Below are positions 4,373 through 21,667 of a stretch of DNA of 64,000 bases, piece by piece. A model generated the notes under the pieces. The model did not search any database and was not told the DNA's origin. It was given only the letters and a program-made list of their open reading frames with translations. The stretch is taken from IMG/VR virus record IMGVR_UViG_3300033144_005525, positions 125,402-189,401 of that record. One strand, written 5' to 3'. The position numbers and the translations under genes were made by a program. The DNA comes from a virus. Positions within the stretch are counted from its first letter, which is position 1; every line of letters starts with the position of its first letter.

Positions 4373-5836
4373 CTAATACGTCTCCTCGGAGGGGAGTAGA
4401 TCTTTGAACTGATCTATCAAACCCTGTTTCTGCTTCGACAGCGTGGTCAGATACTCATCGGCCCCTGTACCTGGTTTACGGATCTTTGATTTCTCCAACA
4501 GGCCATGCTCAGGAAGAATGGCTAAGTACCTCTGCACGTGAACAACTCTCTTGTTCTTTGGGAGGTGAGAATGGCTTTTGTAGCGGATACCACGTCCCTC
4601 TACTTGACGAATCTTCTCCTGATTCCAATGAGGCTCCATGACCTGGATCATGCTAGTGCCCTTAAGGTCAAGTCCTTCTCCTCCAGCAGAGGATAAGAGC
4701 AGGACTCTGTTCTTGCCTTCATTGAAGTTCTGGACCATTTGATCTCGGTCCCTCTTCTTCATCTTACCGGTGAACTCACCGTAAGGGATCTTGGCTGAGT
4801 TCAACCGCTTCTTGTACGGATCTAAGCCAGCTTGTATGTAATTCGAATAGACAACGACTCGACCATACGGGTCTTTGAGCTCTTTCTTCAGGTTACCGAA
4901 AGCGGCCTGAATTTTAGCTTCGTGCGACGTCTTATCTTCTTTGATGTACGGGGCAGTACTCAAAGACACCTGACGAAGACCAGTCATGAACGCGTTGAGG
5001 TCCCTAGATTCCTGCTTAGAGGGAGGTAGATTGTTCCTGACTTTGAATCGAACCCAAGCCGGAGCCTTCTTGATGATGGAGTTGTATATCTCCCTCTGCT
5101 CCTTAGTCATGGGGACTTTGACGTCTGATCGTTCTACTAGTGGGAAATTCTCCTCACCTCTGGGGTGATGGTCTATCCACTTTTCGAACGATGCTCGTAT
5201 CTCCTCCTCCATCTTGGGATCGAGCTCTGTCACAGAGCCTGGCCGAATACCTTTCAACGTCCCCCAAAACCCTGGGCCTACTTTCCGTTCCCGTGTGTAC
5301 CGCTTTTTGAATTCAACAGGGTCGTTGGGGAATACGTTCTCCCCCGCGGCTATGTTGACTAGCGGAGCGATGTCGGACGGCCTGTTGTAGAAGGGACTGG
5401 CCGTCATCAACATACGTTTTTTAGACTTATTGTCTCTCAGTACTCGGAACCCCTTGGTGTGGGTCTCCCGAATACGATGGGCCTCATCAACTACCAACAC
5501 CTCCTCAACTGGAGGCTGTCCACTGACTGTCACCTTCTGTAGGGACAGCAAGTCAGGATTAGGAGTGCCTCCGGTTGTGTGCTTCTTCAGCTCCTTCTCA
5601 TAGTTCTTGATCAAAGAGGCAGGAGCTACAACTACTGAAGGCTTACCCAAAGCATCCAAAGCCGCTATGGAAGTTAGGGTTTTTCCAGACCCCAATTCAT
5701 GGGCGATCAACAAACCAGGCTGATCTTCTTTGGTTATTCGATCTACGACTCTCTTTTGATGAGGCTGTAGCTTAGTTTTTACCTTTGCGTACTTCCGCAA
5801 AAGCTGCATCCCATCGCGTATGCCTGCAAAGTCCAC
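4373..5836 (-). CDS. SNF2/SWI2-type superfamily 2 helicase or translocase
   Basis: A 487-residue ATPase starting at GTG 5836, with AGGAAG seven bases upstream. Motif I is HELGSGKT (46-53), motif Ia VVVAPASLIKNY, motif II VVDEAH (115-120), motif III MTASPF (144-149), motif V near SSAGGEGLDL and motif VI QVEGRGIRY. The compact layout, and a start almost at motif Q (KLQPHQKRVVDRI), fit SNF2-like translocases that move on double-stranded DNA. Unlike the plus-strand SF2 helicase at 25318, this gene lies in the block with the polyvalent protein, tail spike and RNA polymerase. SNF2 domains are common partners of polyvalent proteins in phages such as P1, so delivery with the virion is plausible but inferred. 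It is directly followed by the polyvalent-protein start. Confidence 0.85.
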   Translation of the reverse strand: MDFAGIRDGMQLLRKYAKVKTKLQPHQKRVVDRITKEDQPGLLIAHELGSGKTLTSIAALDALGKPSVVVAPASLIKNYEKELKKHTTGGTPNPDLLSLQKVTVSGQPPVEEVLVVDEAHRIRETHTKGFRVLRDNKSKKRMLMTASPFYNRPSDIAPLVNIAAGENVFPNDPVEFKKRYTRERKVGPGFWGTLKGIRPGSVTELDPKMEEEIRASFEKWIDHHPRGEENFPLVERSDVKVPMTKEQREIYNSIIKKAPAWVRFKVRNNLPPSKQESRDLNAFMTGLRQVSLSTAPYIKEDKTSHEAKIQAAFGNLKKELKDPYGRVVVYSNYIQAGLDPYKKRLNSAKIPYGEFTGKMKKRDRDQMVQNFNEGKNRVLLLSSAGGEGLDLKGTSMIQVMEPHWNQEKIRQVEGRGIRYKSHSHLPKNKRVVHVQRYLAILPEHGLLEKSKIRKPGTGADEYLTTLSKQKQGLIDQFKDLLPSEETY

Positions 5837-5857: not shown

Positions 5858-7840
5858 CTACAGTAGCTGCTTCTGCTGAAGACCGCGGAGACCTTGGATG
5901 ACCTCTTCCAGGTTCTTCATCGAACGCTCGATAGCTCCCTCATCGACCTGAGACATACCCATGCGAGCAGCCATGAGCATCTCAGCCAACCTCTGGACAG
6001 TCTCATCCATCTGTGGGAGGTAGCTGGCGAAGATGGCGATGTTCTCCGGGTTGAGGAAGTTCATCGCCAAGATGCGATCTGCTGTCTCTGAGTCCTCGAG
6101 TGCAGCTGCTTCCTTGACGAGATCTCGACGAAGGTCGTAGGGGAACTTCCCAAGCAGGACGGAAGCCTCCTTGATGGCCTCCTGGTGCACATGCTCGAGC
6201 GGTGTGATGGTGAGGAGACCCTCAGCGGTCGTCCTACCCTGTCTCTGAGCCTCTGCCAGCTTCTCACGGGCTTGGAACTGGTTGAGACCTGCAGTCACCA
6301 GCAGGAACTCTGCAGCCTGTTTGTCCAGCCACTGGACTTGAGCCAGCTTGCTGAACGGAAGACCGCTGAGGTGGAACTCATCCTTCCCGGTCGAGCGAAT
6401 CCAACCGGTGGTAGAGAATGCTCGAGCTTCCTTGACCTGCTCGGCGGCAGAGGGCGTCTTGACGACATGAACAGCCTCACCCAGAGGAGTGAACTTCATC
6501 GTGTCGGGGATCGCGTACGTGCCTTCACCAGTAGCTTCGATGGTGTTCAGTCCTTGGGTGACCATCAGAGTGATGTCGTTGCCGAAGGCATCCTGAACAA
6601 TGAACCCAGGATTCCCCTGCTCGTCCTGAGTCTGGTTCTGCACGGTCACAGGAGGCAAAGCACAGACACTGCCGTCCGGCTTGATGTAGAAGAAGGCCCC
6701 ATCCCCTTGAGGAGGGGCCTCAGGGATACTGGCGGCGTCGTCGCCCACCCTAACCCCTACAATCTCATCCTGCAGGCTGTAGCTGCTCTCTCCGTCCGTG
6801 AACAGGAACAGAGGGAGCTTGTCCATGTCGAAGTCCATGACCGGAATGACCCAACCGGTCTTGTCTTCTCCAGTCTCCTCGATCTGCACCTGATACTGAC
6901 CGAAGTCTCCGACGATGGCAGGGGTCGGGTCATCGAGAGAAGGCTTAGCCTCCTCAGTCCCCACCGTCATGGAGTCTCCGGGCTGCATCTGCTGGACAGA
7001 ATCCGTGCCCGCCATCTGCTGGGCTTCTTGTGGATTCGCAGAGGCTTCTTGCGGGGAGAATGCACCCGCATTGGCCCACTTGATCTTGAAGTTGCCGTCT
7101 GCCTGCTTGATGAACTGAACCACCGTGGGCTGGATGGATTGGACCAGAACGCCAGCCGTCTTCTGAACGGAGGTTCGAGGCGTCGACGTCACGATGTGGG
7201 CCATCTTGTGGAAGTTTGGATTGACCTGTACTGCCACAAGAAGTTGCTGGTCCTTGGCGATCTTCTCCACCAGAGCAACTGCATCCTCATCAGAGATGGT
7301 GGGTGCGATTGCCTCCATCAGACTGGCGAACTTGCCAAATCCGGCTCCTCCGGCCGCGGCCCCAGTTGTCACGCCAGATCCGTACCCGTAGTTGGTTCGG
7401 ATTGGTGGGTGTAGCTGGTCGACCATGCCCTGATCGACAGGCTTGCGGGTTGATGGCTCGAAGGTTCGACCGTCGAAGAGAGCCTCACTGACACGCTGCT
7501 CACTCATCGGGAAGGCCTTGTCTTCGAACAGGAAGATGTCGGCCGGCGCCATGAGGCGGTCCTTCACGATGATGGGAATGATGACCTTCGGGCCTTCAGC
7601 AGAGGGCTGATCTGTAGGTGTGGTCACCTCGGCACTACCAAAGGCATACCCACGCTCTGGATTCACTCTCTGGAAGATCACGTTCACCGTGTAGTTGGAG
7701 AGAAACGGCAGGAACTTGTAGATCTCTGAACTGACCTCTTTCTGCCAGTTGTCTACGTTGTCCGACAGTTTGATGGGCATAGCCATCTTCTCGAAGGAGA
7801 TATCGGTAGCTTGCTGATCGAGAAACAGTGGAGTTGTCAT
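5858..7840 (-). CDS. Putative virion protein, 660 residues, with repeated K-x-A motifs
   Basis: Starts at ATG 7840 (ATGA overlap with the tail spike gene). Residues 1-25 contain ISFEKMAMPIK. Residues 30-150 look like a beta-rich domain. A Gly/Ala hinge near 150-170 (YGYGSGVTTGAAAGG) precedes an alpha/beta region. Residues about 250-500 are acidic and beta-rich, and the last 150 residues are helical with LEEVIQGLRGLQQKQLL at the end. The pattern K-x-A, usually after F-x or E, recurs along the chain: FEKMA, FGKFA, VEKIA, FHKMA, VQKTA, FSKLA, REKLA, and variants IKEA and VKEA. No enzymatic motif is evident. Neighbours (spike, SNF2 ATPase, polyvalent protein) suggest an internal or baseplate-associated virion protein. 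The family is not recognised. Confidence 0.65.
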   Translation of the reverse strand: MTTPLFLDQQATDISFEKMAMPIKLSDNVDNWQKEVSSEIYKFLPFLSNYTVNVIFQRVNPERGYAFGSAEVTTPTDQPSAEGPKVIIPIIVKDRLMAPADIFLFEDKAFPMSEQRVSEALFDGRTFEPSTRKPVDQGMVDQLHPPIRTNYGYGSGVTTGAAAGGAGFGKFASLMEAIAPTISDEDAVALVEKIAKDQQLLVAVQVNPNFHKMAHIVTSTPRTSVQKTAGVLVQSIQPTVVQFIKQADGNFKIKWANAGAFSPQEASANPQEAQQMAGTDSVQQMQPGDSMTVGTEEAKPSLDDPTPAIVGDFGQYQVQIEETGEDKTGWVIPVMDFDMDKLPLFLFTDGESSYSLQDEIVGVRVGDDAASIPEAPPQGDGAFFYIKPDGSVCALPPVTVQNQTQDEQGNPGFIVQDAFGNDITLMVTQGLNTIEATGEGTYAIPDTMKFTPLGEAVHVVKTPSAAEQVKEARAFSTTGWIRSTGKDEFHLSGLPFSKLAQVQWLDKQAAEFLLVTAGLNQFQAREKLAEAQRQGRTTAEGLLTITPLEHVHQEAIKEASVLLGKFPYDLRRDLVKEAAALEDSETADRILAMNFLNPENIAIFASYLPQMDETVQRLAEMLMAARMGMSQVDEGAIERSMKNLEEVIQGLRGLQQKQLL

Positions 7841-8946
7841 GATCTAACCTTCGGACTTACGTGTTTGAATGGAGGAACGATAGGCCCTCTCAATACTGGA
7901 ACGGGCGGACTCGGTGGCCCTATCAATAACCCTGTGACTGCGCCTATCCAGGCCATGAAATCTGGGGAAGCTCGTATGACTGGGAACTCTGCATCTCCCA
8001 ATCCTACGCTCAGTCCGTTCAAAGCTGCGCCACCGGAACCAAGAGCAAGAGTAGCCCCGCCTCCAGATAAGGCCATGGAGGCTGCCGACGCCGTGAGAGC
8101 TACTGTCGAGGTGATATCGATGGCTCCTGTCACGATGAGCTTGAACAGGCCTTTGACGGTGGCCTGCATATCTCCTTCGACAGTGAGCGTGAACTTCTTG
8201 ACGGTCCATGTGAGTTCTCCGTCTTTGTTGATCTCGAGGGATGTCTGAGTAGTTCCCCCACCAGAATCACGGCTTAGCAGGCTCAGAATAGTGTCATTGC
8301 CCTCTCCGTGGGAACCCATTTTGAGAATAGCGATGGGGTCCTCAATCGGATCATCTGCAAATTCACGGGCTCCCAGAGTGAACAAGCACATTTGGTGCCC
8401 TTCTCCATCCTCTTCCGTTCGGGCAACCTCCCAGGTGAGGTCTCCGGCCGGAGTGTGGAGCTCGTAGTTCTCACAGTGGTCTTGGATGATGTTCCTGATA
8501 GGTAAGTAGATGCGTTGGCAAACAGGAGTGGCTCCCACCTGGATGATCCCACCACGACGCAGGTGGACGAAGTTCCCATCCCTGGTAGAGAAATGAAGAT
8601 CTCCAGGATTCAGCAACTCACGGCCACCCCTAAACGCACCACCTTCATCCACCATGCTCCAACCCAGAACGAAGGCATCCTTGCCTTCTTCTGAGGGAGT
8701 ACATATCCAGCAGGTGGATCCCACTTCGGGCATAAAGTTGATCCCCTCTCCCTGCGTTTGGTTGCAGTAGGGAGACATGAAAGGGATGTCGAACTTGTTT
8801 TTGTACGTGAGGATGGTAGTCACGTCACACGTGTAGTCCCGAATGTTGACGGTCGTGATTCGGCCACTCTCTATCAGGGCACCTTTTACCTGAGCGGCCG
8901 ACTTGGCCATGCTCTCACATCGTTCTGGTTCTACATTCGCAGGCAT
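7837..8946 (-). CDS. Tail spike / baseplate central spike protein with OB-fold
   Basis: A 369-residue protein starting at ATG 8946. Residues about 28-105 match the OB-fold of contractile-tail spike proteins (gp5/gpV/gp45 type), with the pattern ESGRITTVNIRDYTCDV, then FMPEVGSTCWICTPSE and AFVLGWS. Residues 235-325 consist of short alternating strands with Gly, Ala, Ser and Thr (TLTVEGDMQATVKGLFKLIV, ALSGGGATLALGSGG), as in the beta-helical needle of membrane-piercing spikes. The tail ends in Pro-rich PPSPPVPVLRGPIVPPF, reminiscent of the tip or PAAR-docking part. It is three bases downstream of the RNA polymerase gene and overlaps the next gene by ATGA. The baseplate genes at 57073-62698 supply the matching machinery. 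Assembly as a trimer is expected from the family. Confidence 0.75.
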   Translation of the reverse strand: MPANVEPERCESMAKSAAQVKGALIESGRITTVNIRDYTCDVTTILTYKNKFDIPFMSPYCNQTQGEGINFMPEVGSTCWICTPSEEGKDAFVLGWSMVDEGGAFRGGRELLNPGDLHFSTRDGNFVHLRRGGIIQVGATPVCQRIYLPIRNIIQDHCENYELHTPAGDLTWEVARTEEDGEGHQMCLFTLGAREFADDPIEDPIAILKMGSHGEGNDTILSLLSRDSGGGTTQTSLEINKDGELTWTVKKFTLTVEGDMQATVKGLFKLIVTGAIDITSTVALTASAASMALSGGGATLALGSGGAALNGLSVGLGDAEFPVIRASPDFMAWIGAVTGLLIGPPSPPVPVLRGPIVPPFKHVSPKVRS

Positions 8947-8949
8947 GGG

Positions 8950-11900
8950 CTAGTACAGATGCGTCTTCTTGGGGGTTCCCTCCCCGAACTCCGCTCCGTA
9001 GGCATAAGCCGGGATTGGGTTGTTTCCGTGTAGGTTGGTTTTCCAACCCTTGGATGCACCCTCCATGAGGGTTTCCTTCAGCTTACGGAAATTGAGTCTG
9101 GCCATCCAATCCTCTTGCTGATCAAGAGCTCCCTGAGACAACCCCTTGATGACCGGTCTGTGTGTCACTGGGGCGCTACGGCTTCCTGCTTTTTTGTTCT
9201 CTTCTTCGATGACAGAACGAAGAACTATATCCCCACTGAAATAATCTGAGTCTCCCGGATCCTTCACCTGAGTTAGATTGGTCAAAGAACGAACGACCAT
9301 TTCTATGTTTCGTCGCTTGACCCGCTCATCTTTGTAGATCCCATCGTACAGCTCCTTGGTGAGGTAGTTCTGCACTGTTGGGATATCGGTGAGGGGAAGA
9401 AGCTCTCTTGGGTTGATTGGACCGTCCGTAAGGGGGGAACCCTTCTTCATGCTGGATCCAACCTGAAGAGGTTTTCCATCCCTCAACAGTTTCCTCTGCG
9501 ATGGAGCGTAGTGTTTCTCTCCTCCGATGTAGACGTTCCAGCCCTGCGTGTCCTTGTCTCGTTCGATCTTCTGGACCTTCCCACCCACTCTTGAAAGCGT
9601 TGCGGATCCAGGTAGCTTCTTTGGGGGATTCAAGAGCTGCTTCAGGCGACCGATTCTACTGACCGCACCCGCACCTCTGGAGCCTGCGACTCCTCCTGTG
9701 TGGAAGCTGTCCATTGCTAGCTGCATGGCAGGTTCACCTAGAGCGTGACCTGCGATGACACCGATGTTGGTACCCACACTGTGGTCTTCACCATTCTCAT
9801 TCAGACCAAAGCACTTGGAGCATATACCCCTACCGTGAGAGCACTTGAGTGGGCTACGTACAACAACCTTCCCAACTCCATTCTTCTTCAACTGAGACAG
9901 AAGATGAGGAGTAACCAAAGAGCCCTCTTCGTGCAGCCTTCCTCCCGCTTTAACCTTCTTGGCCAGATACCTACCGTGGACATCCTCTTCGTGGATTCCC
10001 ATGGAGATACCATCACCCACCTTGCAATCCTTGGACACAATCATCTCTGGGATGACTGTGTTGACGATCTCCTTGGTCAACATACCGGGCTCAGACGTTC
10101 CTTCTGCCCTTTGCAGAGTACCCATCCGAGCTCCGTGTAGGGCTGTCCAATAATCTCCGACATCCAATCCCTCGGAGTAAGACTTCCTCACAGGGGTCGG
10201 GAGAGTCCTTCCGGTGGCATCCTGCATGAGCATGGGCGCAATGTTCATCTGTCGGAACTGGGACCAGTTACCTCGAGTACCCGAGTCCACCATAGTGAAA
10301 ATGTTATTCCCACTGGCCTCTATCCGGGGCTTGAGCTTCTTCTTCATATCGTCGGTGGCTTTGGTGTAGTTAGCCACCAGCTTTATGTCCTTGTCCTCTT
10401 GACTGAGCTTCCCTGCCATTATTTTGGCAGCAACTACATCTGCCTTGGCCAAAATCTCTTCTCGGACAGCTTTGTCTTCACCCAGACCGAGATCGGAGAG
10501 ACCTATGGAGAATCCGAACTCGTAGCTATGTTGGTTCCCTAGGTTCTTCAGACGGTCAACTGTATTGGCGTAGTTGCGTGGATCATCTCTGGCAATTTCC
10601 GAGAGGATGTCATGAACACCGACCTTGTTCTTGTCTTTCGAGTCGGAGAACTTGTTGAGGACGAACCTTGGGTTGTGTAGGAGATCTTTGTTGTCTCGGA
10701 ATCTCTTAGGGAGCTGATGAGCCAACATCAGGCGACCTACAGTGGTCTTCTTCCCATTTACTGTAACCACGTCCTGCGCAGTGACGATCCCTCTGTCACA
10801 AGCCTTCTTCGCATCAGCGTAGGTAGAGAACTTCTTCCCTACGTCTTTGCCCCACTTGGACAGGAGGTGGATACCCAACAGAGACTCTTGCTCTGGGGCA
10901 TACATGACTCCCCCATTGGTAGAGCTGAACAGGTTGTTTGAGGGGAACATCTTACGAGACTCTCGAACTGCCTTATCCGTTAATGGGACAAAGGCGCTCA
11001 TCGTGTCTCCGTCGAAGTCTGCGTTGTAACCTGCAGTGACCAGAGGATGGATCCGAATAGCCTTTCCATCCACCAACTGCGGCTTGAACGCCATGAAGTT
11101 GAACTTGTGTAGGGCAGGATCCCTCTTCAGAAGAACAGGGCGGTCCTCTATGATCTTTTCGAGAGCTGCCCAAGCCACAGCTGTCTCTTCCTTGATGTCC
11201 TTATGAGCTTGTAGTGGGCTGCGTCCTGTTCTCTTGAGCTCTCGAATGACGAATGGCTTGTACAGCTCCATAGCTGCACTGCGAGGTATACCGACACGGT
11301 CCAGGTGCATCTCCGGCTCAGGGATGATGGTGGAGCGCATCGACAGCTCTTGCCGTCTCTTCATCAACTTGCGTTGGAAGAACCCCTGCTTCGGAGAAGG
11401 ACCCGCTACCGTATCCAGGATCCCTTTCAGTTGTCTGTTAGATTCGTACTGAGGTACTCCACCAGTACCCATTGTGGCTTTTAGTAGATCGTACAGCTCC
11501 TCTCGTAGAGGCTGATCTGCTTCCGGTAGGTCAAGGATCTTGTCCTTCAACTTGTTGTTGACGATCCCAAGATCCTTGTACAGGTGGTTGATGTCATCGA
11601 AGCGCAACGATCCATCAGGCATAGGAACGATTGGACGAAATACCGGAGGAATCACCGGTACATTGTTCATCACGTAGGCTTCGCTGGGAGACAGCTTCAG
11701 TTCCTTCAAGGCCCGGAGGTACTTGGCCTTCCTGTTGGCGTGGTTGAGCTTGGCCTTCCTGAGGTTGGGGAGCTCGGCCACTGTCTTCTTGAGCTCGGCA
11801 TCTACATCGACTTGATCGAGAAGGTGTCGGATGGCTTCCCCTCCGATCTTCCCATCGATGTCCTTCTTACCCTTCACGATGTCTTCGAACTCTGGGTACT

Positions 11901-14900
11901 TCAACCCACTCAACACCACGGCGGGTCCAGGTTTCTGCGGTGTGCCTACGAACACAGGGTTTGGCATCGGCTCTGCCAGAGCTATGTGAGACCAGTTGAG
12001 TCCTTTGCCAGGTTCGTTAGGACTAGGTAGACCTCCAGTGATCTCTGGATCAAATAATCCCTTCTCGAGCTCCTTGGCATCCTTTCCACGAAGCACACGA
12101 CCAGCATCTTTGATCTCTCCATTCGAGAGATTCAAGACCCCTTTGTCTGTGAGAGGGACAAGCTGCAGCTCATTTCCCTCCTTCTTAGTGTCGATGCCTA
12201 ACCCCTTCAGATAAGCCTCAAACTTCTTGTAGGCAAAAGTAGGGCGTGGCGCAGGAATTGGCTGCCCCATCTGCACACGATGCCAGAAGTCTACGTGCGC
12301 TTGCGGATTCATGTTGTCGTCTACCTGACGATCCGCCTTGTACGTGGCCATCTCCTTTAGGTTCTCACGAGCTCCATGAGCCAACAGACTGTAGAACTCC
12401 AACTGTCCGATTCCCTGCCCCGGATGCTCTGCCCCCGTACCCTTAGGAGCACCGTCGATGGAGTAGTTGGGTCCATGACTTCGGACAGTCAACTTCTTAT
12501 CCACCTGATGCTTGAGTTTCATAATGTACTGGTCCCCCGTCAGTACATTTCCAATCCTCTTCTTGGTCTCTGGATCAAACAGCTCTTCTTGATCCGATAG
12601 CCCATGATTAGCCAAATCCTTCTTCACACCCTCGGTGTAGTCGATGTTGGCCCCACCAAAGTTGTTCACCAAGTAAGGACGACCTGTCTTCTTGGCTATT
12701 TTGCTGGAGGCTGTCTCCAACATTTGACCCAAGTTGATGCGACTGGGCACACCAGACGGATTCATCAGCACTTCTACATGCTCTCCGTCAGGACTCCCCT
12801 TACGTGGCATCTCTGCGTTGGGAATTATCTTGGTGATAATGGCCTTGTTTCCGTGGCGACCAACAATCTTGTCACCCACCTCGGCAGGCTCTTCTGTGCG
12901 GATGTGAACTACAGCACCCTTCCCATTCGGGATCTTATGTACCTTGACCACCTCACCAGGATTCTGAGACTCCCACTTGGAGCTTCTATCGGCGTACTCG
13001 AACAGCTTCCTGTCCAGTCTAGAGGCCATACGAGAGACAACGCCGAGGTTCTCCCTCTTCCCGACGGCAGCCACCAAGATGTCCCCAGTGTCCACTTTCT
13101 GCCCTACACGAATGACCCCATCGTCATCCAGTTTATCCAACTGCTCTCGAGTCATTTGCTTCGAAGTAGTGGAAGCGTATGCCTGGAACTTCTTCTTGTT
13201 CATGAAGTCTTTGGAAGGGTCAATCTCCACACTCTTCCGATAGACATGCTCTGAAGTAAGTTTGTCGGCAGCTGAATCAGAAATGACGATGCCGTCCTCG
13301 AAGTTGTAACCCTTGTAAGGCAGGTAACTAACCCGCAGGTTTGTTCCCAGCGCTAGTCCACCATCCCTGGTGAAGTTCGTGTCGGCCAGGACCTGCCCTT
13401 TCTTTACCTCAGCACCGACCTCTACTACGGGCTCTGAGTTCATGAAGGACTTTGCGTCATTCAGAGGGAAGTGATTGTAGAGCTGTACCTCGTGCTTCTT
13501 TCTATCCTTCCCCTTGATGATAATCGAGTCCGGATACTCGTTGTCGGTCTGATCAGAACGGATCTTCAAGACCTTTCCGTCAACAGGAGAGGAGTGAGAG
13601 AACGGACCACCAATGATCTTTTCCCAGCTATCCTTTCCTCCACGTACCTGGACAAGTGGAAGCTCTCTATCCCTCAGACCCACTGCCTGGTTGGCTTGGC
13701 GAGAGGCCGTCATCGTCCTGTTGCCCTGGTTGTTCTGAAGGAACGGAATCAGGTTGGTGGCTTCATCGAACAACTGATGAGGAGATACAAACAAGTAGCG
13801 AGCCTTCTTGAAAGGCTGCTTGATGATGTCCCCTGTCTTGGGGTCCTTCATCTTCACTGTGGGGGATATAGGCTTGGGGCCTTTTCCATCCTCCCATGTG
13901 ACTTGATCAGGAAGTAGGACGTACTCCGAATGGAGCTCCGCTGGAGTGACTCCGTTCCTACCCTTCCTGAATTTCTTTTCCTTCAGGTCGTAGACCAGTG
14001 CCTTGACGTCTTCCCCATCCTTGACGACACCCATAGGCAAGTTGAGGCTGATGCCTGTTCTCTTGCTCTCCGGTGTGTGGATAGGATCCAAGAAGCCCAT
14101 ATGGCTGGGGTTGATGAGTTTCATAGAGCGGGACAAAGTCCTCTCGCTCTTGATCCCTCCCTCTTCTCCCCCAAGGATGGTAGTAGCTCGATGGTTGGAG
14201 AGCATCTCCAGAGGATTGACCTGCTCCGGATTCTCTGACAGAGAGGATCTGGTGAACACTTGATCGACGTGCCTACCGAACAGGTCTCCCGATACGACTT
14301 CTCGTACCTTGTCCTTCCTGTTGATGTTGTTACTGATCTTCCTCTTGATCTCCCTCTGAGTAACGGCTTTGCCGATCCTCTCCAACAGGAAGTCGTCTAC
14401 ACTGGTGAGCTTTTTGAACACCAGAGAGTCTCGATCATCTGGTGGAGCTTCACCTCGAGCAACTTCAAGAACTCTCCTGGACGCTTGCAGCAGTGCATCA
14501 CCAGTCACCGTCTTGTAGGGCTTACCAAGAGTACGTTGGGTAGTCTCTGGCAGTAGCTCGGTGTTACCGAACTCTTCTACTACAGCACTGGCGATATCGT
14601 CGTACGTGTCACCCTTGGCCTTCACACCTCTTTGGCTGATTTTGCTGTAGAGCTGCTTGATGTTTCCTTCCGTCTTGTCTGTGACATTGGCCTTGTAGAT
14701 GTCTGGTCCCCAGACCTTCTTCATCTCTTCGTCCTGGACACCCAAGGTCTTCAAGATGGAGTAGAGAGGTATGTTCTGGGTCCCCCATCTCATCTTGAAC
14801 GCTTTGGTCTTGGGGCTGAATGGGACCTTCAGCCTGGACTCTCGAGCGAAGGGCTTGGACAGTGCGAACTCTGTCTCTAGATCTCCATTCGCCTTGATCT

Positions 14901-15264
14901 GAGAGTACACACCAGGACGGAGTCTCCAGAGGTTCCCTACTTGCCTTTCATTGCCTCCGACGATGTAGCTGTATCGGTCGGTCGGTCTCGGTAAGGTAAA
15001 CAGTTTTACCTTAGAGCGATCGACAACCTTGCTGGTCTTCTTATCTACGAGGCTGATATCCCCATACACACCAGCTCCCCAAGTTCTATTGGACAGCTTG
15101 GCCTTTTCTTGGCTTCGAATGTCACCGGATTCAGCAGATCGCTGATCTACGATAACCTCGTTTAGAACCAGTTTGCGGGTCTGTCCATCGACCGGAAAGC
15201 TAGCCTTGACAGACTTGACCGCGCTGCGCTGTAAATCTTTCCAAGTATCGGCTGGTGTTGTCAC
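8950..15264 (-). CDS. Single-chain multisubunit-type RNA polymerase (beta-beta' fusion)
   Basis: The protein has 2104 residues from GTG 15264, with GGGAG eight bases upstream. Residues 1-990 are beta-like: a fork/rifampicin-pocket region (NPSHMGFLDPIHTPES, 385-400), GYNFEDGIVIS (652-662), VGRHGNKAIITKI (801-813) and GQLEFYSLLAHGA (953-965). Residues about 1000-2104 are beta'-like: a clamp start with GLFDPEITGG joined directly to a W-S-H-I-A-L-A-E-P segment, so the usual first zinc ribbon is missing. Then come the switch/lid-type region 1289-1340, catalytic NADFDGD (1414-1420; Asp1416, 1418, 1420), bridge-helix GARMGT (1711-1716), a second zinc site with Cys1747, 1808, 1815 and 1818, and trigger-loop GEPAMQLAMDSFHTGG (1843-1858). 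All catalytic elements appear intact. No alpha, omega or sigma genes are seen nearby. It transcribes DNA, probably phage promoters. Its place beside the spike gene leaves open whether it travels in the virion. Confidence 0.95.
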   Translation of the reverse strand: MTTPADTWKDLQRSAVKSVKASFPVDGQTRKLVLNEVIVDQRSAESGDIRSQEKAKLSNRTWGAGVYGDISLVDKKTSKVVDRSKVKLFTLPRPTDRYSYIVGGNERQVGNLWRLRPGVYSQIKANGDLETEFALSKPFARESRLKVPFSPKTKAFKMRWGTQNIPLYSILKTLGVQDEEMKKVWGPDIYKANVTDKTEGNIKQLYSKISQRGVKAKGDTYDDIASAVVEEFGNTELLPETTQRTLGKPYKTVTGDALLQASRRVLEVARGEAPPDDRDSLVFKKLTSVDDFLLERIGKAVTQREIKRKISNNINRKDKVREVVSGDLFGRHVDQVFTRSSLSENPEQVNPLEMLSNHRATTILGGEEGGIKSERTLSRSMKLINPSHMGFLDPIHTPESKRTGISLNLPMGVVKDGEDVKALVYDLKEKKFRKGRNGVTPAELHSEYVLLPDQVTWEDGKGPKPISPTVKMKDPKTGDIIKQPFKKARYLFVSPHQLFDEATNLIPFLQNNQGNRTMTASRQANQAVGLRDRELPLVQVRGGKDSWEKIIGGPFSHSSPVDGKVLKIRSDQTDNEYPDSIIIKGKDRKKHEVQLYNHFPLNDAKSFMNSEPVVEVGAEVKKGQVLADTNFTRDGGLALGTNLRVSYLPYKGYNFEDGIVISDSAADKLTSEHVYRKSVEIDPSKDFMNKKKFQAYASTTSKQMTREQLDKLDDDGVIRVGQKVDTGDILVAAVGKRENLGVVSRMASRLDRKLFEYADRSSKWESQNPGEVVKVHKIPNGKGAVVHIRTEEPAEVGDKIVGRHGNKAIITKIIPNAEMPRKGSPDGEHVEVLMNPSGVPSRINLGQMLETASSKIAKKTGRPYLVNNFGGANIDYTEGVKKDLANHGLSDQEELFDPETKKRIGNVLTGDQYIMKLKHQVDKKLTVRSHGPNYSIDGAPKGTGAEHPGQGIGQLEFYSLLAHGARENLKEMATYKADRQVDDNMNPQAHVDFWHRVQMGQPIPAPRPTFAYKKFEAYLKGLGIDTKKEGNELQLVPLTDKGVLNLSNGEIKDAGRVLRGKDAKELEKGLFDPEITGGLPSPNEPGKGLNWSHIALAEPMPNPVFVGTPQKPGPAVVLSGLKYPEFEDIVKGKKDIDGKIGGEAIRHLLDQVDVDAELKKTVAELPNLRKAKLNHANRKAKYLRALKELKLSPSEAYVMNNVPVIPPVFRPIVPMPDGSLRFDDINHLYKDLGIVNNKLKDKILDLPEADQPLREELYDLLKATMGTGGVPQYESNRQLKGILDTVAGPSPKQGFFQRKLMKRRQELSMRSTIIPEPEMHLDRVGIPRSAAMELYKPFVIRELKRTGRSPLQAHKDIKEETAVAWAALEKIIEDRPVLLKRDPALHKFNFMAFKPQLVDGKAIRIHPLVTAGYNADFDGDTMSAFVPLTDKAVRESRKMFPSNNLFSSTNGGVMYAPEQESLLGIHLLSKWGKDVGKKFSTYADAKKACDRGIVTAQDVVTVNGKKTTVGRLMLAHQLPKRFRDNKDLLHNPRFVLNKFSDSKDKNKVGVHDILSEIARDDPRNYANTVDRLKNLGNQHSYEFGFSIGLSDLGLGEDKAVREEILAKADVVAAKIMAGKLSQEDKDIKLVANYTKATDDMKKKLKPRIEASGNNIFTMVDSGTRGNWSQFRQMNIAPMLMQDATGRTLPTPVRKSYSEGLDVGDYWTALHGARMGTLQRAEGTSEPGMLTKEIVNTVIPEMIVSKDCKVGDGISMGIHEEDVHGRYLAKKVKAGGRLHEEGSLVTPHLLSQLKKNGVGKVVVRSPLKCSHGRGICSKCFGLNENGEDHSVGTNIGVIAGHALGEPAMQLAMDSFHTGGVAGSRGAGAVSRIGRLKQLLNPPKKLPGSATLSRVGGKVQKIERDKDTQGWNVYIGGEKHYAPSQRKLLRDGKPLQVGSSMKKGSPLTDGPINPRELLPLTDIPTVQNYLTKELYDGIYKDERVKRRNIEMVVRSLTNLTQVKDPGDSDYFSGDIVLRSVIEEENKKAGSRSAPVTHRPVIKGLSQGALDQQEDWMARLNFRKLKETLMEGASKGWKTNLHGNNPIPAYAYGAEFGEGTPKKTHLY

Positions 15265-15453
15265 CTGTGCGCTCCCTCGGGAATTCAGGCCTACGTATGT
15301 TCGTTCGGATCCTATGCACCTGCGCTCAGAGCAGTCCTCGGACCTTAGAACTTCAAATTAGGTTACGCCAAACAAAACTCTGCGTCCAGAGGGCATAAGA
15401 GTGTTGATGGGGCACCTCTGCCCGCTTCTGGGTATGTGACCCAGGGAAAAACC
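15265..15453. promoter_or_regulatory. Divergent intergenic region between RNA polymerase and plus-strand genes
   Basis: These 189 bases separate the GTG of the RNA polymerase gene (minus) from the plus-strand gene at 15454. An A/T-rich stretch at about 15340-15382 contains AATTAGGT (15356-15363), a box repeated at 25271-25278 and, with one change, at 28742-28749. Two hairpins follow at 15410-15444. No convincing sigma-70 promoter with both boxes at correct spacing was found by eye. Promoters for both directions are expected here. Confidence 0.45.
15410..15444 (+). promoter_or_regulatory. Tandem hairpins in leader before 15454
   Basis: Two perfect inverted repeats lie back to back: GGGCA / TGCCC (15410-15414 and 15419-15423, loop CCTC) and CTGGGT / ACCCAG (15428-15433 and 15439-15444, loop ATGTG). 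The second ends nine bases before the ATG at 15454, and the presumptive ribosome binding site AGGGA at 15443-15447 overlaps its 3' arm, so folding could limit ribosome access. A six-base stem with a five-base loop also precedes the helicase gene at 25318. No U-run follows, so these are not simple terminators. Confidence 0.45.
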
Positions 15454-16843: not shown

Positions 16844-19522
16844 CTACGAACAGCCTGTAGTTGCTCCACAGTTGCTGCACAGAAAACAGGAGCCGGACCT
16901 CTTGGTCAAGCTGCCACAATCTGAGCACGGTGGACCGTCGTAGGCGATCGTCAAATCCACCACCTGGATGGGAGGTTTGACGATAGTTGATCCAGAGGCT
17001 TCCGCTTTCTTCGGCTCCTCTTCCGACAGGTAGCGGAGCTCTATCCACCTAAAGAGATAGTCGATGATGGACTTGGCAATGCTGATTTCATCGTCACCTG
17101 TGAAACCGGCTGGCTCGAAGCTCGTACCCTTGAACTTGTCGCAGAGGAGCTTGACCGGAACACCATGTTGGATCCCGAAGGACACCGACTGGGCGAAGCA
17201 CTCGAGTATTCCTCCCAAGAAACTTCCCTGCTTGGAAATCCGAACGAAGATCTCAGCTAGGGTTCCATCCGGATACTCCCCAGCCGTGATGTATCCCTTG
17301 ACGTTAGCCACTCGGAACTTGTGGGTGACTGAGTTTCTTGTGTTCGGCAGATCTTTGCGCTCTCCCCACTTCCTGATGGAGAACCCATCCTTGTGCTCCA
17401 GCTTGGTAGCAACGGGCTGGGATAGCTTGCACCCACTCCTATAGATGGCAACGCACTTCAGGCCACCCCTCCACGCCTTCATGTAGATGTCTGCTACGTC
17501 TTGAGAGGTAGCATCCTCTGGCATGTTGACGGTCTTGGAGATGCCTCCCGACAAGAAAGGTTGAACGGCCGCCATCATGTCGATATGCCCTTGCGGCTTT
17601 AGAGCATGTGACCCAAGGGACCCAGCGAAGATCTCGTTGTGCTCCTCTTTGAATCCGGGAGCACCGTGAATGTCCCCATTGTTCCTGATGTAGTTCTCGA
17701 TCTCACCGATTTGATCGTAGTCGTAACCCAGGTTGAGTAGGGCAGGACCCACCACGCGGCTAGGCAACATCAAGACACCCTCTCCGACGATCTTCTTGTA
17801 GACCACGACTCCCAACATCGGCTCAATGCCTGTGGTATCGCAGTCCATCAAGAACGAGATGGTTCCCGTCGGAGCTAGCAGAGTAGTTTGTGCGTTTCGG
17901 AACCCCCACATCTTTCCGTTGGAGTAAGCACTGATCCATGCATTCATCGAAGACTTGGCCAGATCGGTCCAAGGTTTATCGATAGGGACCGGAATCTCCC
18001 TGGCGCTTTCCAGATGCCTCTCGATCACCGCCAACATGGGCTCTCGGTTCTTCTCGTATTCCTGGAATGGTCCTTTTGCCATAGCCAGGATCGCCGATTG
18101 GTCGTAAGCCCTGCCGCCCATCAAGGAAGTGATGAGAGCTGCCACGTTCCTACCCTCATCACTGTCGTAGGGTAGACCCCAAAACGTGAGGAGGGCACCG
18201 AGGTTGGCATACCCAAGACCCAACGGTCGGAACTTGTGACTCATCTCCGCAATTTGCGGACTTGGGTAAGAAGCAGCATCGACGATGATCTCTTTAGCTA
18301 TGATGGCAATGTCGATGGCCTGTAGGAAATCATTCACCAGGAACCCATCATGCTTGGCGAACTTCATGAGATTAAGGGATCCCAGGTTGCACGCCGAGTT
18401 GTTCAGGAACAGGTACTCTGAACATGGATTCGTGGCAGTGATCTCCCCACTGTTCGGGCAAGTGTGCATCTCGTTGATGATGGACTTGAACTGCAGTCCA
18501 GGGTCACCACAGAGGTGCGCTGCGTCACTCATCTCTTCGAACATCTCCTTGGCCTGGTAGTGCCGATGATCGGAGCCGTCCGCGTACTTCGTGGTCCACA
18601 CACTGTCGTCCACCACCCCTTGCATGAAATCATCTGATACACGCACGGAGTGATTGGCGTTCTGGTAACCGACCCTGTCGTAGACGTTCCCTCGGATGTT
18701 CCACTCCGCAGAGTACTTCCCAGTCTCGTACAGGGCTTGAGCCTCCCTCTCTGCATCCGCCTTGCAGCCGATGAATCCAGGAAGACCATTCCTCTGGGCG
18801 ATGATGTCTGGATGATCGGCATCGAGAACATTCATCTTCGCGGCACGACGAGTGGTGCCTCCGGATTTGGTGACTCCGGCAAAAGCGTCGTACCCCTTCA
18901 TGAACGACACAGGTCCCGATGCGTAGCCTCCTCCCGATAGTTTTTCCCAGGAACTACGTATGGAGGACAGATTGGCTCCGGTACCGGAACCGCCTTTGAA
19001 CAGCATGACCTCTCGCTTGGCGAGATCCATGATGTCACTCATTGTGTCGTCCACTCCCTGGATGAAGCACGCTGAGCATTGTGGGTCTTCCTTCACCCCT
19101 ACGTTGAACCAAACGGGAGAGTTGAAGGCGTACATCCCATTCACTAGGAGATGCAGGAGTTCCAGATGGAAGATGTTGGAATCTTCCGGGAGGATTACAC
19201 TCTGCCCCACACCTTTTTGAGTGATCCATATGGCCACTCTGTTGAACATCTGCTTGGCCGAGAACTCCTTTACCCCACTGACTACGCGAAAGTATTTCTC
19301 GACAACGATGTTGATCGTGTTGTCGGACCACGTCGATGGCACTTCGACGCCGTCCTGACGGAACTTCTCGACTCCATCCGCACCGATCAATACGGCGTCT
19401 GTAGTCACCCATTCAATGGTGTCGAAAGGGTGAGCACCCTCATCGACGAAGTGGCGCTTCACGCTCAGTGGACGATAGTCGTCCTTGACTGCCGTTGACT
19501 CTGGAACGACGGTAGTCTCCAT
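16844..19522 (-). CDS. nrdJ: Adenosylcobalamin-dependent (class II) ribonucleotide reductase
   Basis: An 892-residue enzyme starting at ATG 19522, with GGGAGG upstream. It would reduce ribonucleotides to deoxyribonucleotides for phage DNA synthesis. Seen: the first active-site Cys region QCSACFIQG (Cys149/Cys152), the loop FKGGSGTGANLSSIR (175-189), catalytic NPCSEY (Asn365, Cys367, Glu369), Cys378 in NNSACNLGSLNL, and PTGTISFLMDCDTTGIEP. The C terminus is a Cys-rich tail (CSDCG...CFLCSNCG...GCS) typical of NrdJ, thought to relay electrons from thioredoxin. No small subunit or NrdG-type activase is nearby, consistent with class II, so the enzyme should need host vitamin B12. It stands between the terminator and the portal gene. 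Confidence 0.95.
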   Translation of the reverse strand: METTVVPESTAVKDDYRPLSVKRHFVDEGAHPFDTIEWVTTDAVLIGADGVEKFRQDGVEVPSTWSDNTINIVVEKYFRVVSGVKEFSAKQMFNRVAIWITQKGVGQSVILPEDSNIFHLELLHLLVNGMYAFNSPVWFNVGVKEDPQCSACFIQGVDDTMSDIMDLAKREVMLFKGGSGTGANLSSIRSSWEKLSGGGYASGPVSFMKGYDAFAGVTKSGGTTRRAAKMNVLDADHPDIIAQRNGLPGFIGCKADAEREAQALYETGKYSAEWNIRGNVYDRVGYQNANHSVRVSDDFMQGVVDDSVWTTKYADGSDHRHYQAKEMFEEMSDAAHLCGDPGLQFKSIINEMHTCPNSGEITATNPCSEYLFLNNSACNLGSLNLMKFAKHDGFLVNDFLQAIDIAIIAKEIIVDAASYPSPQIAEMSHKFRPLGLGYANLGALLTFWGLPYDSDEGRNVAALITSLMGGRAYDQSAILAMAKGPFQEYEKNREPMLAVIERHLESAREIPVPIDKPWTDLAKSSMNAWISAYSNGKMWGFRNAQTTLLAPTGTISFLMDCDTTGIEPMLGVVVYKKIVGEGVLMLPSRVVGPALLNLGYDYDQIGEIENYIRNNGDIHGAPGFKEEHNEIFAGSLGSHALKPQGHIDMMAAVQPFLSGGISKTVNMPEDATSQDVADIYMKAWRGGLKCVAIYRSGCKLSQPVATKLEHKDGFSIRKWGERKDLPNTRNSVTHKFRVANVKGYITAGEYPDGTLAEIFVRISKQGSFLGGILECFAQSVSFGIQHGVPVKLLCDKFKGTSFEPAGFTGDDEISIAKSIIDYLFRWIELRYLSEEEPKKAEASGSTIVKPPIQVVDLTIAYDGPPCSDCGSLTKRSGSCFLCSNCGATTGCS

Positions 19523-19597: not shown

Positions 19598-21667
19598 TCA
19601 CACTAGCTGAACTTGACGGCGGGGCGGTTTTACTTCAGGCAGTGGGCTCTGCATAGGACTCAAATTGTCCGACTGCGATCCCTGTCCTGACTGCAAGATC
19701 CGAAGCACCAGCATGTAAAGCTGCGGATTCTGTGCCCTCATCTGCATCAACGCCATCTGCTGTTGCGAATCTTCATACTGGGAGATCGCAGAGGCAGCCC
19801 TTTGGGCAAGGTACAGAATATTCATCTGCCCACCAGCTTGCTGCTGATTGAGCGGAGACTGGACCTCGACCGGTAGTCCCTTAGCAGGTGGAGTCGTTGA
19901 GTTCTCTGGATACGCAGTGGCGTCTGCCGGCATACCCGGAGCCGCCTGCTGCCCTACCATGGGCTGCTGATCTGTCATGCCGGCGGCTGGCGGCCCTCCC
20001 GCCGGGGGACCTCCGCCGGACGGTGGAGTAGGGACAGACTCCGGGTTGTCTGCGGTGGCACCGCCCGCTCCAGCCCCCATCCCTTGAGGATTCGGCATTG
20101 TTGGAGTCATGCCGCTCCGACCCATGATAGCCATCGCCTGGGCCTGGTAGCGGGCCTGGACTATCTGCAGGTCTCCCTGCAGTGCTGCACTAGCAAGCTG
20201 CTGCTTGCGCTGGTTCTCAAGCTGCTGGGTGAGCTCGGCCTTCTTGTGCTTCTCCTCCTGGACGATATCCACTTCGACTTCATCGAGCAGAGTCGTATCA
20301 GAGATCTTCATGGCCTGATTCATCTGGAAGATCAGGGCAGTACGCTGGAGGTCATCTGCCATCCGGAACCGACGGAAGTGGACCTTGGGAGCAGACCAAC
20401 CCATGTAGTTGGCGACACGACCGAGGATGAAGTCTCGACAGAGGATGAGTTGGTTGGTGCGGTAGCCGAGGAACTGATTCTCGAGCATCCGCATGGAGAC
20501 GTTGGAACCGCTGTACTGCAGACCACCGAACACGAATTCGATCGGAACGTGCATGCCGGCCACGATCTGCTCAGACCAAGCCCTCATCTCCTGGTGGAGC
20601 ATCAAGGCTTTGCCCTCTCCACCGATGGTCTCGTTCCCCACAGGGAGTGGGAGGATCGGGATGTAGTTCTGGTCCAGCTTCCACTTCTCGATCTCTGCCT
20701 CAATACGTCGACGCCACATACTGAGATCAGCTGTGGAGTACGGGTCCGAGCTCGAGCTCCCAGCCTGTGGGAACAGGATGCGGAGAGGAACGATGTACTG
20801 CTGAGCGATGGCCTCCTGTGCCTTGCGTAGAACCTGAAGGTAGTAGGTGTCTTTGAGGACCGGGAGGATGAGTGGGATGCCCCAACCTTGGTCCTTCTGG
20901 GCAATGGTTGGACGCTTCAGATGGAACACCTCGTTGTCCCTGAAGCGGAGGGACTTGGAGCCCTTCAAGGCCTCAACGAACTCATTGGGTATCGCCTCAA
21001 TGACGTGGCGCTTACCCATCATGATGTCGTTCTTCAACCCAACAGGTACATCGAAGAAGAACTCCGACTTACCTGTAACCTCATTGTGCTCAACCGTGAT
21101 GTGCTCTGGGTTCCAACGGATGAGTTTGATACCTCGCAGATCCTTGATGTTGTGGTCGTACACCATGGCTTCTGTAGTGGTGATGCACTTGGGACAAGCC
21201 AGGTAGTACTTGAAGTTGCGGAACTTGTAGGCTGCGTTCTTCGCCTTCTGTTGTTCGTGGCAGTTGCGGCAGATCAGGTACTTCTCAAACGGGAAGTGAA
21301 TCGTGATGAACGCATTGCCATAGCAGAAGTAGTCGAGACCGGTCTCAATCTGAAATGTCCGCAGTTTGAGAACGTTCTCGATGACATTCTCCCACTTTCC
21401 TCGTAGCTCTGGGTCTTCTTCATCTACGACCAGAGGTGTAATCGGGTACTCCGCCATCTTGTACGTGACGGCATTGATGAGTGGGTTGACCAGGAAGTAG
21501 TACCGACACCACCTGAACATCTGCTTGACCGAAGTCGGCAGATAGGTGTGTCCGATATCGAAGAAGGGGGAAGGGTACCGCTGAGTACCGCTGTTCCCTT
21601 GGTTGTGGGTGGTATCGAAGCGAGCGGTGCTTCCAATGAACCCTGATCCCGGAGTGCCGGTTGACAT
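19598..21667 (-). CDS. Portal protein with inserted zinc-ribbon-like motif
   Basis: A 689-residue protein from ATG 21667. Residues about 40-480 follow the phage portal pattern: an N-terminal helical region (MFRWCRYYFLVNPLINAVTYKMA), a long stem and wing, VFHLKRPTIAQKDQGWGIPL, a clip region near WRRRIEAEIEKW, and the stretch GMHVPIEFVFGGLQYSGSN. Residues about 132-160 carry CRNC and CPKC, a four-Cys site unusual for portals and probably binding zinc. The C-terminal 200 residues are Gln-, Pro-, Gly- and Met-rich low-complexity sequence (PPSGGGPPAGGPPAAG), likely lying inside the capsid or as a crown. The dodecameric portal would be the DNA entry and exit channel. Downstream neighbours in transcription include nrdJ; upstream are three putative head-vertex proteins. 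Confidence 0.85.
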   Translation of the reverse strand: MSTGTPGSGFIGSTARFDTTHNQGNSGTQRYPSPFFDIGHTYLPTSVKQMFRWCRYYFLVNPLINAVTYKMAEYPITPLVVDEEDPELRGKWENVIENVLKLRTFQIETGLDYFCYGNAFITIHFPFEKYLICRNCHEQQKAKNAAYKFRNFKYYLACPKCITTTEAMVYDHNIKDLRGIKLIRWNPEHITVEHNEVTGKSEFFFDVPVGLKNDIMMGKRHVIEAIPNEFVEALKGSKSLRFRDNEVFHLKRPTIAQKDQGWGIPLILPVLKDTYYLQVLRKAQEAIAQQYIVPLRILFPQAGSSSSDPYSTADLSMWRRRIEAEIEKWKLDQNYIPILPLPVGNETIGGEGKALMLHQEMRAWSEQIVAGMHVPIEFVFGGLQYSGSNVSMRMLENQFLGYRTNQLILCRDFILGRVANYMGWSAPKVHFRRFRMADDLQRTALIFQMNQAMKISDTTLLDEVEVDIVQEEKHKKAELTQQLENQRKQQLASAALQGDLQIVQARYQAQAMAIMGRSGMTPTMPNPQGMGAGAGGATADNPESVPTPPSGGGPPAGGPPAAGMTDQQPMVGQQAAPGMPADATAYPENSTTPPAKGLPVEVQSPLNQQQAGGQMNILYLAQRAASAISQYEDSQQQMALMQMRAQNPQLYMLVLRILQSGQGSQSDNLSPMQSPLPEVKPPRRQVQLV

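What the first reader, a model, noticed from the sequence alone, without database searches (positions are those of the whole stretch)
8950..15264. Complete beta and beta' RNA polymerase in one phage polypeptide, lacking the first beta' zinc ribbon
All catalytic landmarks of both large subunits occur in order in one 2104-residue chain: GYNFEDGIVIS, RHGNKAIITKI, NADFDGD, the bridge helix and the trigger loop with HTGG. The beta' N-terminal clamp reads GLFDPEITGG and then jumps to the W-S-H-I-A-L-A-E-P segment, skipping the four-Cys ribbon found in bacteria, while the second zinc site is kept. No alpha, omega or sigma gene is seen. Multisubunit-type polymerases in phages are known, often split or deep-branching. 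A full fusion beside a tail spike gene raises the question of virion packaging and of how promoters are recognised without sigma.
Basis: partly seen in the sequence, partly recalled or inferred. Interest (0 to 1): 0.85.

Follow-up and report, generated by a model that had tools for sequence, protein, structure and literature searches.

The report
Phage one-chain bacterial-type RNA polymerase
A large tailed phage carries the two big halves of a bacterial-style RNA polymerase joined into one long protein, an arrangement shared by dozens of related phages, and it also has its own sigma factor (just outside the window), so these viruses probably bring a nearly complete transcription machine with them.

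Summary
Window 8950-15264 (minus) is one unbroken 2104-codon frame holding the whole of beta and then beta' with catalytic residues in register. The four-Cys ribbon near the beta' N-terminus is absent and the second zinc site is kept. There is no intein, frameshift or stop.

It is not a singleton. A scan found 325 related contigs. Of the best 80, about 75 carry the same fusion; the 73 phage sequences aligned share a fixed 15-residue junction and lack the first zinc ribbon. Cultured relatives (Salmonella phage Arash, Vibrio phage D69) keep the beta-beta' junction but split beta' later.

'No sigma' is wrong at genome scale. A sigma-70-family protein (286 aa) lies outside the window at genome position 9196-10056. 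Relatives occur in 18 of 20 long records, and the family profile matches bacterial SigA at E = 9e-19. No alpha or omega was found, and the genome holds one RNA polymerase.

Published virion mass spectrometry of Arash found the homologous polymerase and sigma at similar spectra per residue. Likeliest reading: a packaged one-chain core plus phage sigma. The lineage is probably part of the known mReC phages; the fusion, ribbon loss and cognate sigma were not described in the texts I could read.

The parts
8950..15264 (-). fused beta-beta' RNA polymerase, 2104 aa
   Evidence: uninterrupted ORF; Pfam; NCBIfam rpoB and rpoC over successive parts; PDB profile match
12181..15264 (-). beta-equivalent part, residues 1 to about 1028
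   Evidence: alignment to E. coli; AlphaFold2 model of residues 9-620, pLDDT 92.7, matches bacterial beta chains with TMq 0.74-0.79
12157..12201 (-). beta-beta' junction, residues 1022-1036, 15 residues in all 73 phage sequences aligned
8953..12168 (-). beta'-equivalent part, residues about 1033 to 2104
13279..13311 (-). beta motif GYNFEDGIVIS, residues 652-662
   Evidence: aligns with E. coli b E813/D814; D814 column invariant in 73 phage sequences
12844..12858 (-). beta motif RHGNK, residues 803-807; intein insertion site in relatives L011 and L088, no intein here
11986..12060 (-). GLFDPEITGG...WSH segment, residues 1069-1093, where the first beta' zinc ribbon is missing
   Evidence: no Cys in this span in 73 of 73 phage sequences; 50 residues in E. 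coli and Parcubacteria
11005..11025 (-). NADFDGD catalytic motif, residues 1414-1420
10054..10161 (-). bridge helix region, residues about 1702-1737
   Evidence: alignment to E. coli b' 769-804 region
9811..10026 (-). second beta' zinc site, C1747, C1808, C1815, C1818
9655..9732 (-). trigger loop N-terminal part with SFHTGG (H1855)
15272..15278 (-). Shine-Dalgarno-like GAGGGAG before the GTG start
7837..8946 (-). neighbouring baseplate spike-like gene (weak Phage_base_V)
   Evidence: same neighbour in L010 and L011
4373..5836 (-). SNF2-type helicase, homologue of Arash gp217, which is abundant in Arash virions
19598..21667 (-). portal protein homologue, upstream of the polymerase
   Evidence: 31% identity to Arash portal gp204

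Best explanation
The gene encodes the catalytic core of a phage RNA polymerase of the bacterial (beta, beta') type as one chain. Shown: beta is followed by beta' with an almost linkerless junction, all catalytic residues are in place, and a sigma-70-family gene sits in the phage's structural region outside the window. Inferred: the chain folds into an ordinary crab-claw core without needing alpha or omega, because the fusion does the assembly work; the phage sigma binds it and directs it to phage promoters; core and sigma are packaged in the particle and enter the cell with the DNA to start transcription, and the same enzyme is made again later, since the genome holds only one polymerase.
For: Single ORF with beta and beta' domains in order. 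Catalytic residues align and are near-invariant over 73 phage sequences. AlphaFold2 models: residues 560-1530, spanning both barrels and the junction, pLDDT 87.7, pTM 0.78, best PDB matches bacterial beta' with beta among them; residues 9-620, pLDDT 92.7, matches bacterial beta. Sigma: own 286-aa protein matches Arash sigma gp10 (E 1e-17), Pfam Sigma70_r3 over cut-off, weak Sigma70_r2 in the same frame; family profile matches SigA over regions 2-4, E 9e-19; homologues in 18 of 20 long records. No alpha in own genome or the 20 records, no omega in own genome. One polymerase locus per genome in 20 of 20 related records and in its own. Arash virion mass spectrometry: polymerase gp206 is the most detected protein (3516 spectra), gp216 1210, sigma gp10 467 (PMC10585845), or 2.31, 2.00 and 2.00 spectra per residue.
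Against: No expression, activity or virion data exist for this phage. Arash has a split chain and is only about 32% identical, and its authors note that abundant infection proteins may linger in the preparation (116 proteins were detected). No promoter motif was found in this genome. Sigma binding to the core is not shown: E. coli sigma-contacting residues of the beta' coiled coil are mostly not conserved, though sigma and core may have co-evolved. A host alpha could still join.
Confidence: 0.62

Rival explanations
1. The fused core plus phage sigma is a non-virion enzyme made after infection from a host-type promoter, serving middle and late genes; its presence in Arash particles is carry-over.
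For: TTGAC-N16-19-TAnnnT, a sigma-70-type promoter shape, lies upstream of the polymerase gene in 9 of 67 relatives against 0.7 in shuffles, so a host polymerase could express it. The Arash authors raise the carry-over possibility.
Against: Polymerase counts in Arash virions exceed the portal protein per residue, and sigma gp10 is found while the second Arash sigma gp196 is not in the list. The gene sits among structural genes near the portal.
Confidence: 0.25
2. The chain is a polyprotein cut at or near the beta-beta' junction (for example by a prohead protease), so the working enzyme has ordinary separate subunits.
For: Structural proteins of large phages are often processed (general knowledge). 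Arash and D69 show that the chain tolerates a break, though inside beta'.
Against: The junction is 15 residues in 73 of 73 sequences with conserved sequence, not a variable spacer. No cleavage evidence exists.
Confidence: 0.05
3. The fused chain works with host sigma and host alpha and mainly serves as a modified host-like enzyme.
For: Sequence closeness to bacterial beta and beta'; sigma-70-shaped promoters near the gene in some relatives.
Against: A dedicated sigma is conserved in 18 of 20 genomes and co-detected in Arash virions.
Confidence: 0.08

Closest known systems
mReC, multi-subunit RNAP-encoding Caudovirales (Weinheimer and Aylward 2020, PMC7481178)
   Same: Metagenomic tailed phages from IMG/VR with full beta and beta' similarity, the NADxDGD motif, and a deep branch outside bacterial polymerases
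   Different: The parts of the main text I read treat beta and beta' as two subunits, and term searches of the whole main text found no mention of a fusion in these phages, of zinc sites or of a sigma; contig identity could not be checked
Salmonella phage Arash (PMC10585845) and Vibrio phages D69, D148, D181
   Same: About 30% identical polymerase; in Arash and D69 the same beta-beta' junction, no first zinc ribbon and an own sigma; in Arash portal next to polymerase and virion detection
   Different: Beta' is cut in two after the catalytic motif, so two genes instead of one
Fused beta/beta' of Helicobacter and Wolbachia (organisms from general knowledge; NCBIfam NF007172, NF011417)
   Same: Beta and beta' in one chain, in the same order
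   Different: Scores 572 and 511 bits against cut-offs of 5372 and 4632; host enzymes, independent fusion
crAss-like phage phi14:2 gp66 and Thermus phage P23-45 gp96 single-subunit polymerases (PMC10770324)
   Same: One-chain two-barrel phage polymerase; P23-45 gp96 is in the virion
   Different: Those are extremely divergent from beta and beta'; here similarity is plain over nearly the whole length. PMC10770324 mentions 'derivatives with fused DPBB domains' within the cellular-type clade, which may or may not include this group
phiKZ-like and AR9-like jumbo phage virion and non-virion polymerases (PMC7598289)
   Same: Phage multisubunit-type polymerase, virion form known
   Different: Those are broken into four or five polypeptides and come as two enzymes per phage; here one chain and one copy

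Membership tests
mReC polymerase lineage | Full-length beta and beta' similarity with NADxDGD motif on a phage contig | tested here: met
mReC polymerase lineage | Clusters apart from cellular polymerases | tested here: met
   Split from 7 bacterial sequences with SH-aLRT 100; archaea and eukaryotes were not in this tree
mReC polymerase lineage | Tailed-phage hallmark genes on the contig | tested here: met
   terminase, baseplate J, portal and capsid homologues
mReC polymerase lineage | MCP of family PF07068 (seen in the 8 mReC with an MCP; not a selection criterion) | tested here: inconclusive
   no Pfam match to the MCP homologue at E 0.01; weak PHROG major head protein
mReC polymerase lineage | Same contigs or clade as the published 97 sequences | not testable with these tools
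   supplementary data not available
sigma-70 family (own protein at genome 9196-10056) | Similarity over regions 2, 3 and 4 | tested here: met
   family profile against SigA, E 9e-19; Sigma70_r3 over cut-off; r2 below cut-off
Helicobacter/Wolbachia-type cellular rpoBC fusion | NCBIfam equivalog cut-off | tested here: not met
crAss-like / QDE-1-like single-subunit polymerases | Highly divergent, not recognised by beta and beta' profiles | tested here: not met
   rpoC profile 569 bits, rpoB 326-361 bits
phiKZ/AR9-type jumbo phage polymerases | Split into several polypeptides and two enzymes per genome | tested here: not met
   one chain; one Rpb2_6 locus per genome
virion RNA polymerase | Present in the particle | not testable with these tools
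   only the Arash homologue is known to be detected

The most novel reading that the evidence does not exclude
A whole phage lineage packages a self-sufficient, sigma-dependent bacterial-type holoenzyme in its virions: a one-chain beta-beta' core without alpha, omega or the first zinc ribbon, plus a dedicated sigma, perhaps with an SNF2-type helicase, used as the phage's only polymerase.
Probability: 0.45. Interest if true: 0.78.

Novelty: new variant of a known kind. Interest (0 to 1): 0.58.

Why it matters
The known phage virion polymerases discussed here are either very divergent single chains or are broken into several pieces. A full-length bacterial-type core in one chain, lacking alpha, omega and the first beta' zinc ribbon, with its own sigma, would be a minimal natural holoenzyme. 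It would let one test what alpha, omega and the ribbon are needed for, how sigma dependence works without them, and whether a phage can start infection without host polymerase. Cultured relatives (Arash on laboratory Salmonella, Vibrio D69) make this testable now.

Tried and rejected
K-mer and dyad enrichment upstream of own genes gave nothing convincing; dyads did not exceed shuffles. A hairpin plus TAGGG upstream of the polymerase was seen only in a small subclade and not developed. A missing flap-tip helix was suspected by eye and dropped after alignment placed E. coli b 898-906 on phage residues 742-751; only a loop of about 12 residues is shorter than in other bacteria. A first tree had Carin-5 beta and beta' in the wrong order and was redone. 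Ribbon loss as a general phage trait was rejected: Carin-5 and RHph_TM21B keep CxC..CxxC and are not of the fused type. 'No sigma' was rejected. A second sigma-like ORF (137 aa, region-4 HTH only) exists at genome about 35.6-36.0 kb; its role is unknown. Searches for a published description of the fusion found none, but the library misses subscription journals and preprints.

Full report
What is there. The window is part of a 191,126-base IMG/VR virus record. The minus-strand frame 15264-8950 runs 2104 codons from GTG without a stop and has a ribosome-binding-like GAGGGAG before it. Pfam and NCBIfam profiles of beta and then beta' cover it in order. A profile of the central part matches PDB beta' chains at E 3e-99 and beta at 8e-94. 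Catalytic residues of E. coli have exact counterparts, and nearly all of them are invariant in 73 phage sequences. Comparison with relative L010 shows purifying selection.

Missing zinc ribbon. Between GLFD and WSH the phage has 25 residues and no Cys; E. coli and a Parcubacterium have 50 with the four cysteines. All 73 aligned phage sequences, including Arash and D69, lack them, while the second zinc site is kept in about 70. Phages Carin-5 (separate subunits) and RHph_TM21B (a separate beta' gene) keep the ribbon, so the loss is a trait of this lineage and not of phage polymerases in general.

How widespread. A profile scan of viral contigs gave 325 relatives. Of the best 80, 75 or so carry the fusion in one frame (a few of these are cut by contig ends), and three (L077, L083, L085) are broken into pieces. 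The 80 are the best matches and so biased towards full-length ones. The junction span is 15 residues in all 73 aligned. In a tree of 36 sequences the fused phages with Arash and D69 stand apart from bacteria with support 100; Arash and D69 attach near the base of the fused group, with weak support for the exact place. Since Arash gp206 and the D69 protein still carry beta joined to the N-terminal part of beta', the simplest history is one early fusion and a later cut inside beta'.

Sigma. The window has no sigma gene, but the record does: 286 aa at genome 9196-10056 minus. It matches Arash sigma gp10 and lies, as in Arash, in the structural gene region; the order of gp6, gp8, gp10 homologues near one contig end and gp12, gp13 homologues near the other suggests that the record is a circularly permuted near-complete genome. 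Homologues occur in 18 of 20 long records, including both cultured phages. The profile of 19 members matches bacterial SigA, SigB and RpoS over regions 2 to 4, E down to 9e-19. Alpha was not found in own or 20 related records and omega not in own. Each of the 20 related records, and its own, has a single polymerase locus.

Packaging. In published Arash virion proteomics the polymerase gp206 has the most spectra of all, and gp216 and sigma gp10 are present. Normalised by length the three stand at 2.31, 2.00 and 2.00 spectra per residue, helicase gp217 at 2.43, portal 1.51, capsid 4.34. This fits near-equal amounts of core and sigma, but spectral counts are rough, the list has 116 proteins, and carry-over is possible. 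The second Arash sigma, gp196, is not in the list. The window has a homologue of gp217 at 4373-5836.

Structure. AlphaFold2 with family alignments gave confident models of residues 560-1530 (pLDDT 87.7) and 9-620 (92.7). They match bacterial beta' (with beta among the matches) and beta respectively. The whole chain and the sigma complex were not modelled.

Mechanism. Shown: one-chain core with intact active site; a sigma-70-family gene in the same genome; conservation of both; detection of both in virions of a relative (published data). Inferred: intramolecular assembly without alpha and omega; sigma-directed initiation; injection; reuse through infection. The rival that the enzyme is made only after infection from a host-type promoter has some support from sigma-70-shaped sites upstream of the gene in 9 of 67 relatives.

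What is known. The nearest described group is mReC (PMC7481178), which these phages fit on the criteria I could test. The text available to me does not mention that the subunits are fused in those phages, that the ribbon is lost, or that a sigma goes with them. A hydrothermal-mat study describes a related beta and beta prime gene at the base of mReC (PMC10159854). PMC10770324 refers to fused derivatives within the cellular-type clade, so some awareness of such fusions exists. Hence 'new variant of a known kind', not a new kind.

Noticed in passing
own genome outside the window, L004:13878 to L005:3428, and L005:8726-9086: An array of about 35 tRNA genes covering most amino acids, and a tmRNA gene with tag ANDNVDSVELVAQAA.
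   Followed up: no
L011/L022, L088, L096, L097: Intein-like insertions of 340-416 aa in relatives' fused polymerase, at RHGNK, near NPSGVP and inside NADFDG.
   Followed up: partly
upstream of the polymerase start in L010, L021, L034, L063 and others: TTGAC-N16-19-TAnnnT promoter-like sites in 9 of 67 relatives against 0.7 in shuffles.
   Followed up: partly
window 15310-15335 minus, and L010, L011, L023, L028, L034, L081: A short hairpin followed by (A)TAGGG about 50 bases before the polymerase start in the window's subclade; stem letters differ between phages, weak in the window itself.
   Followed up: partly
own genome about 35.6-36.0 kb (L014:1222-1635 plus strand): A 137-aa protein with a sigma region 4-like helix-turn-helix only.
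   Followed up: no
window 16844-19522 minus: Class II (B12-dependent) ribonucleotide reductase between portal and polymerase genes; a similar gene stands in the same place in L010 and L011.
   Followed up: no
window 2096-4372 minus, and L008:3254-5377 minus: Two large proteins with an inorganic-pyrophosphatase-like domain, one also with a C39-type cysteine peptidase domain.
   Followed up: no
L138 (plasmid NZ_AP028965.1) and other plasmid hits: Records filed as plasmids carry ordinary bacterial rpoB-rpoC, e.g. pBSUNA05-1 of Bacillus subtilis.
   Followed up: no
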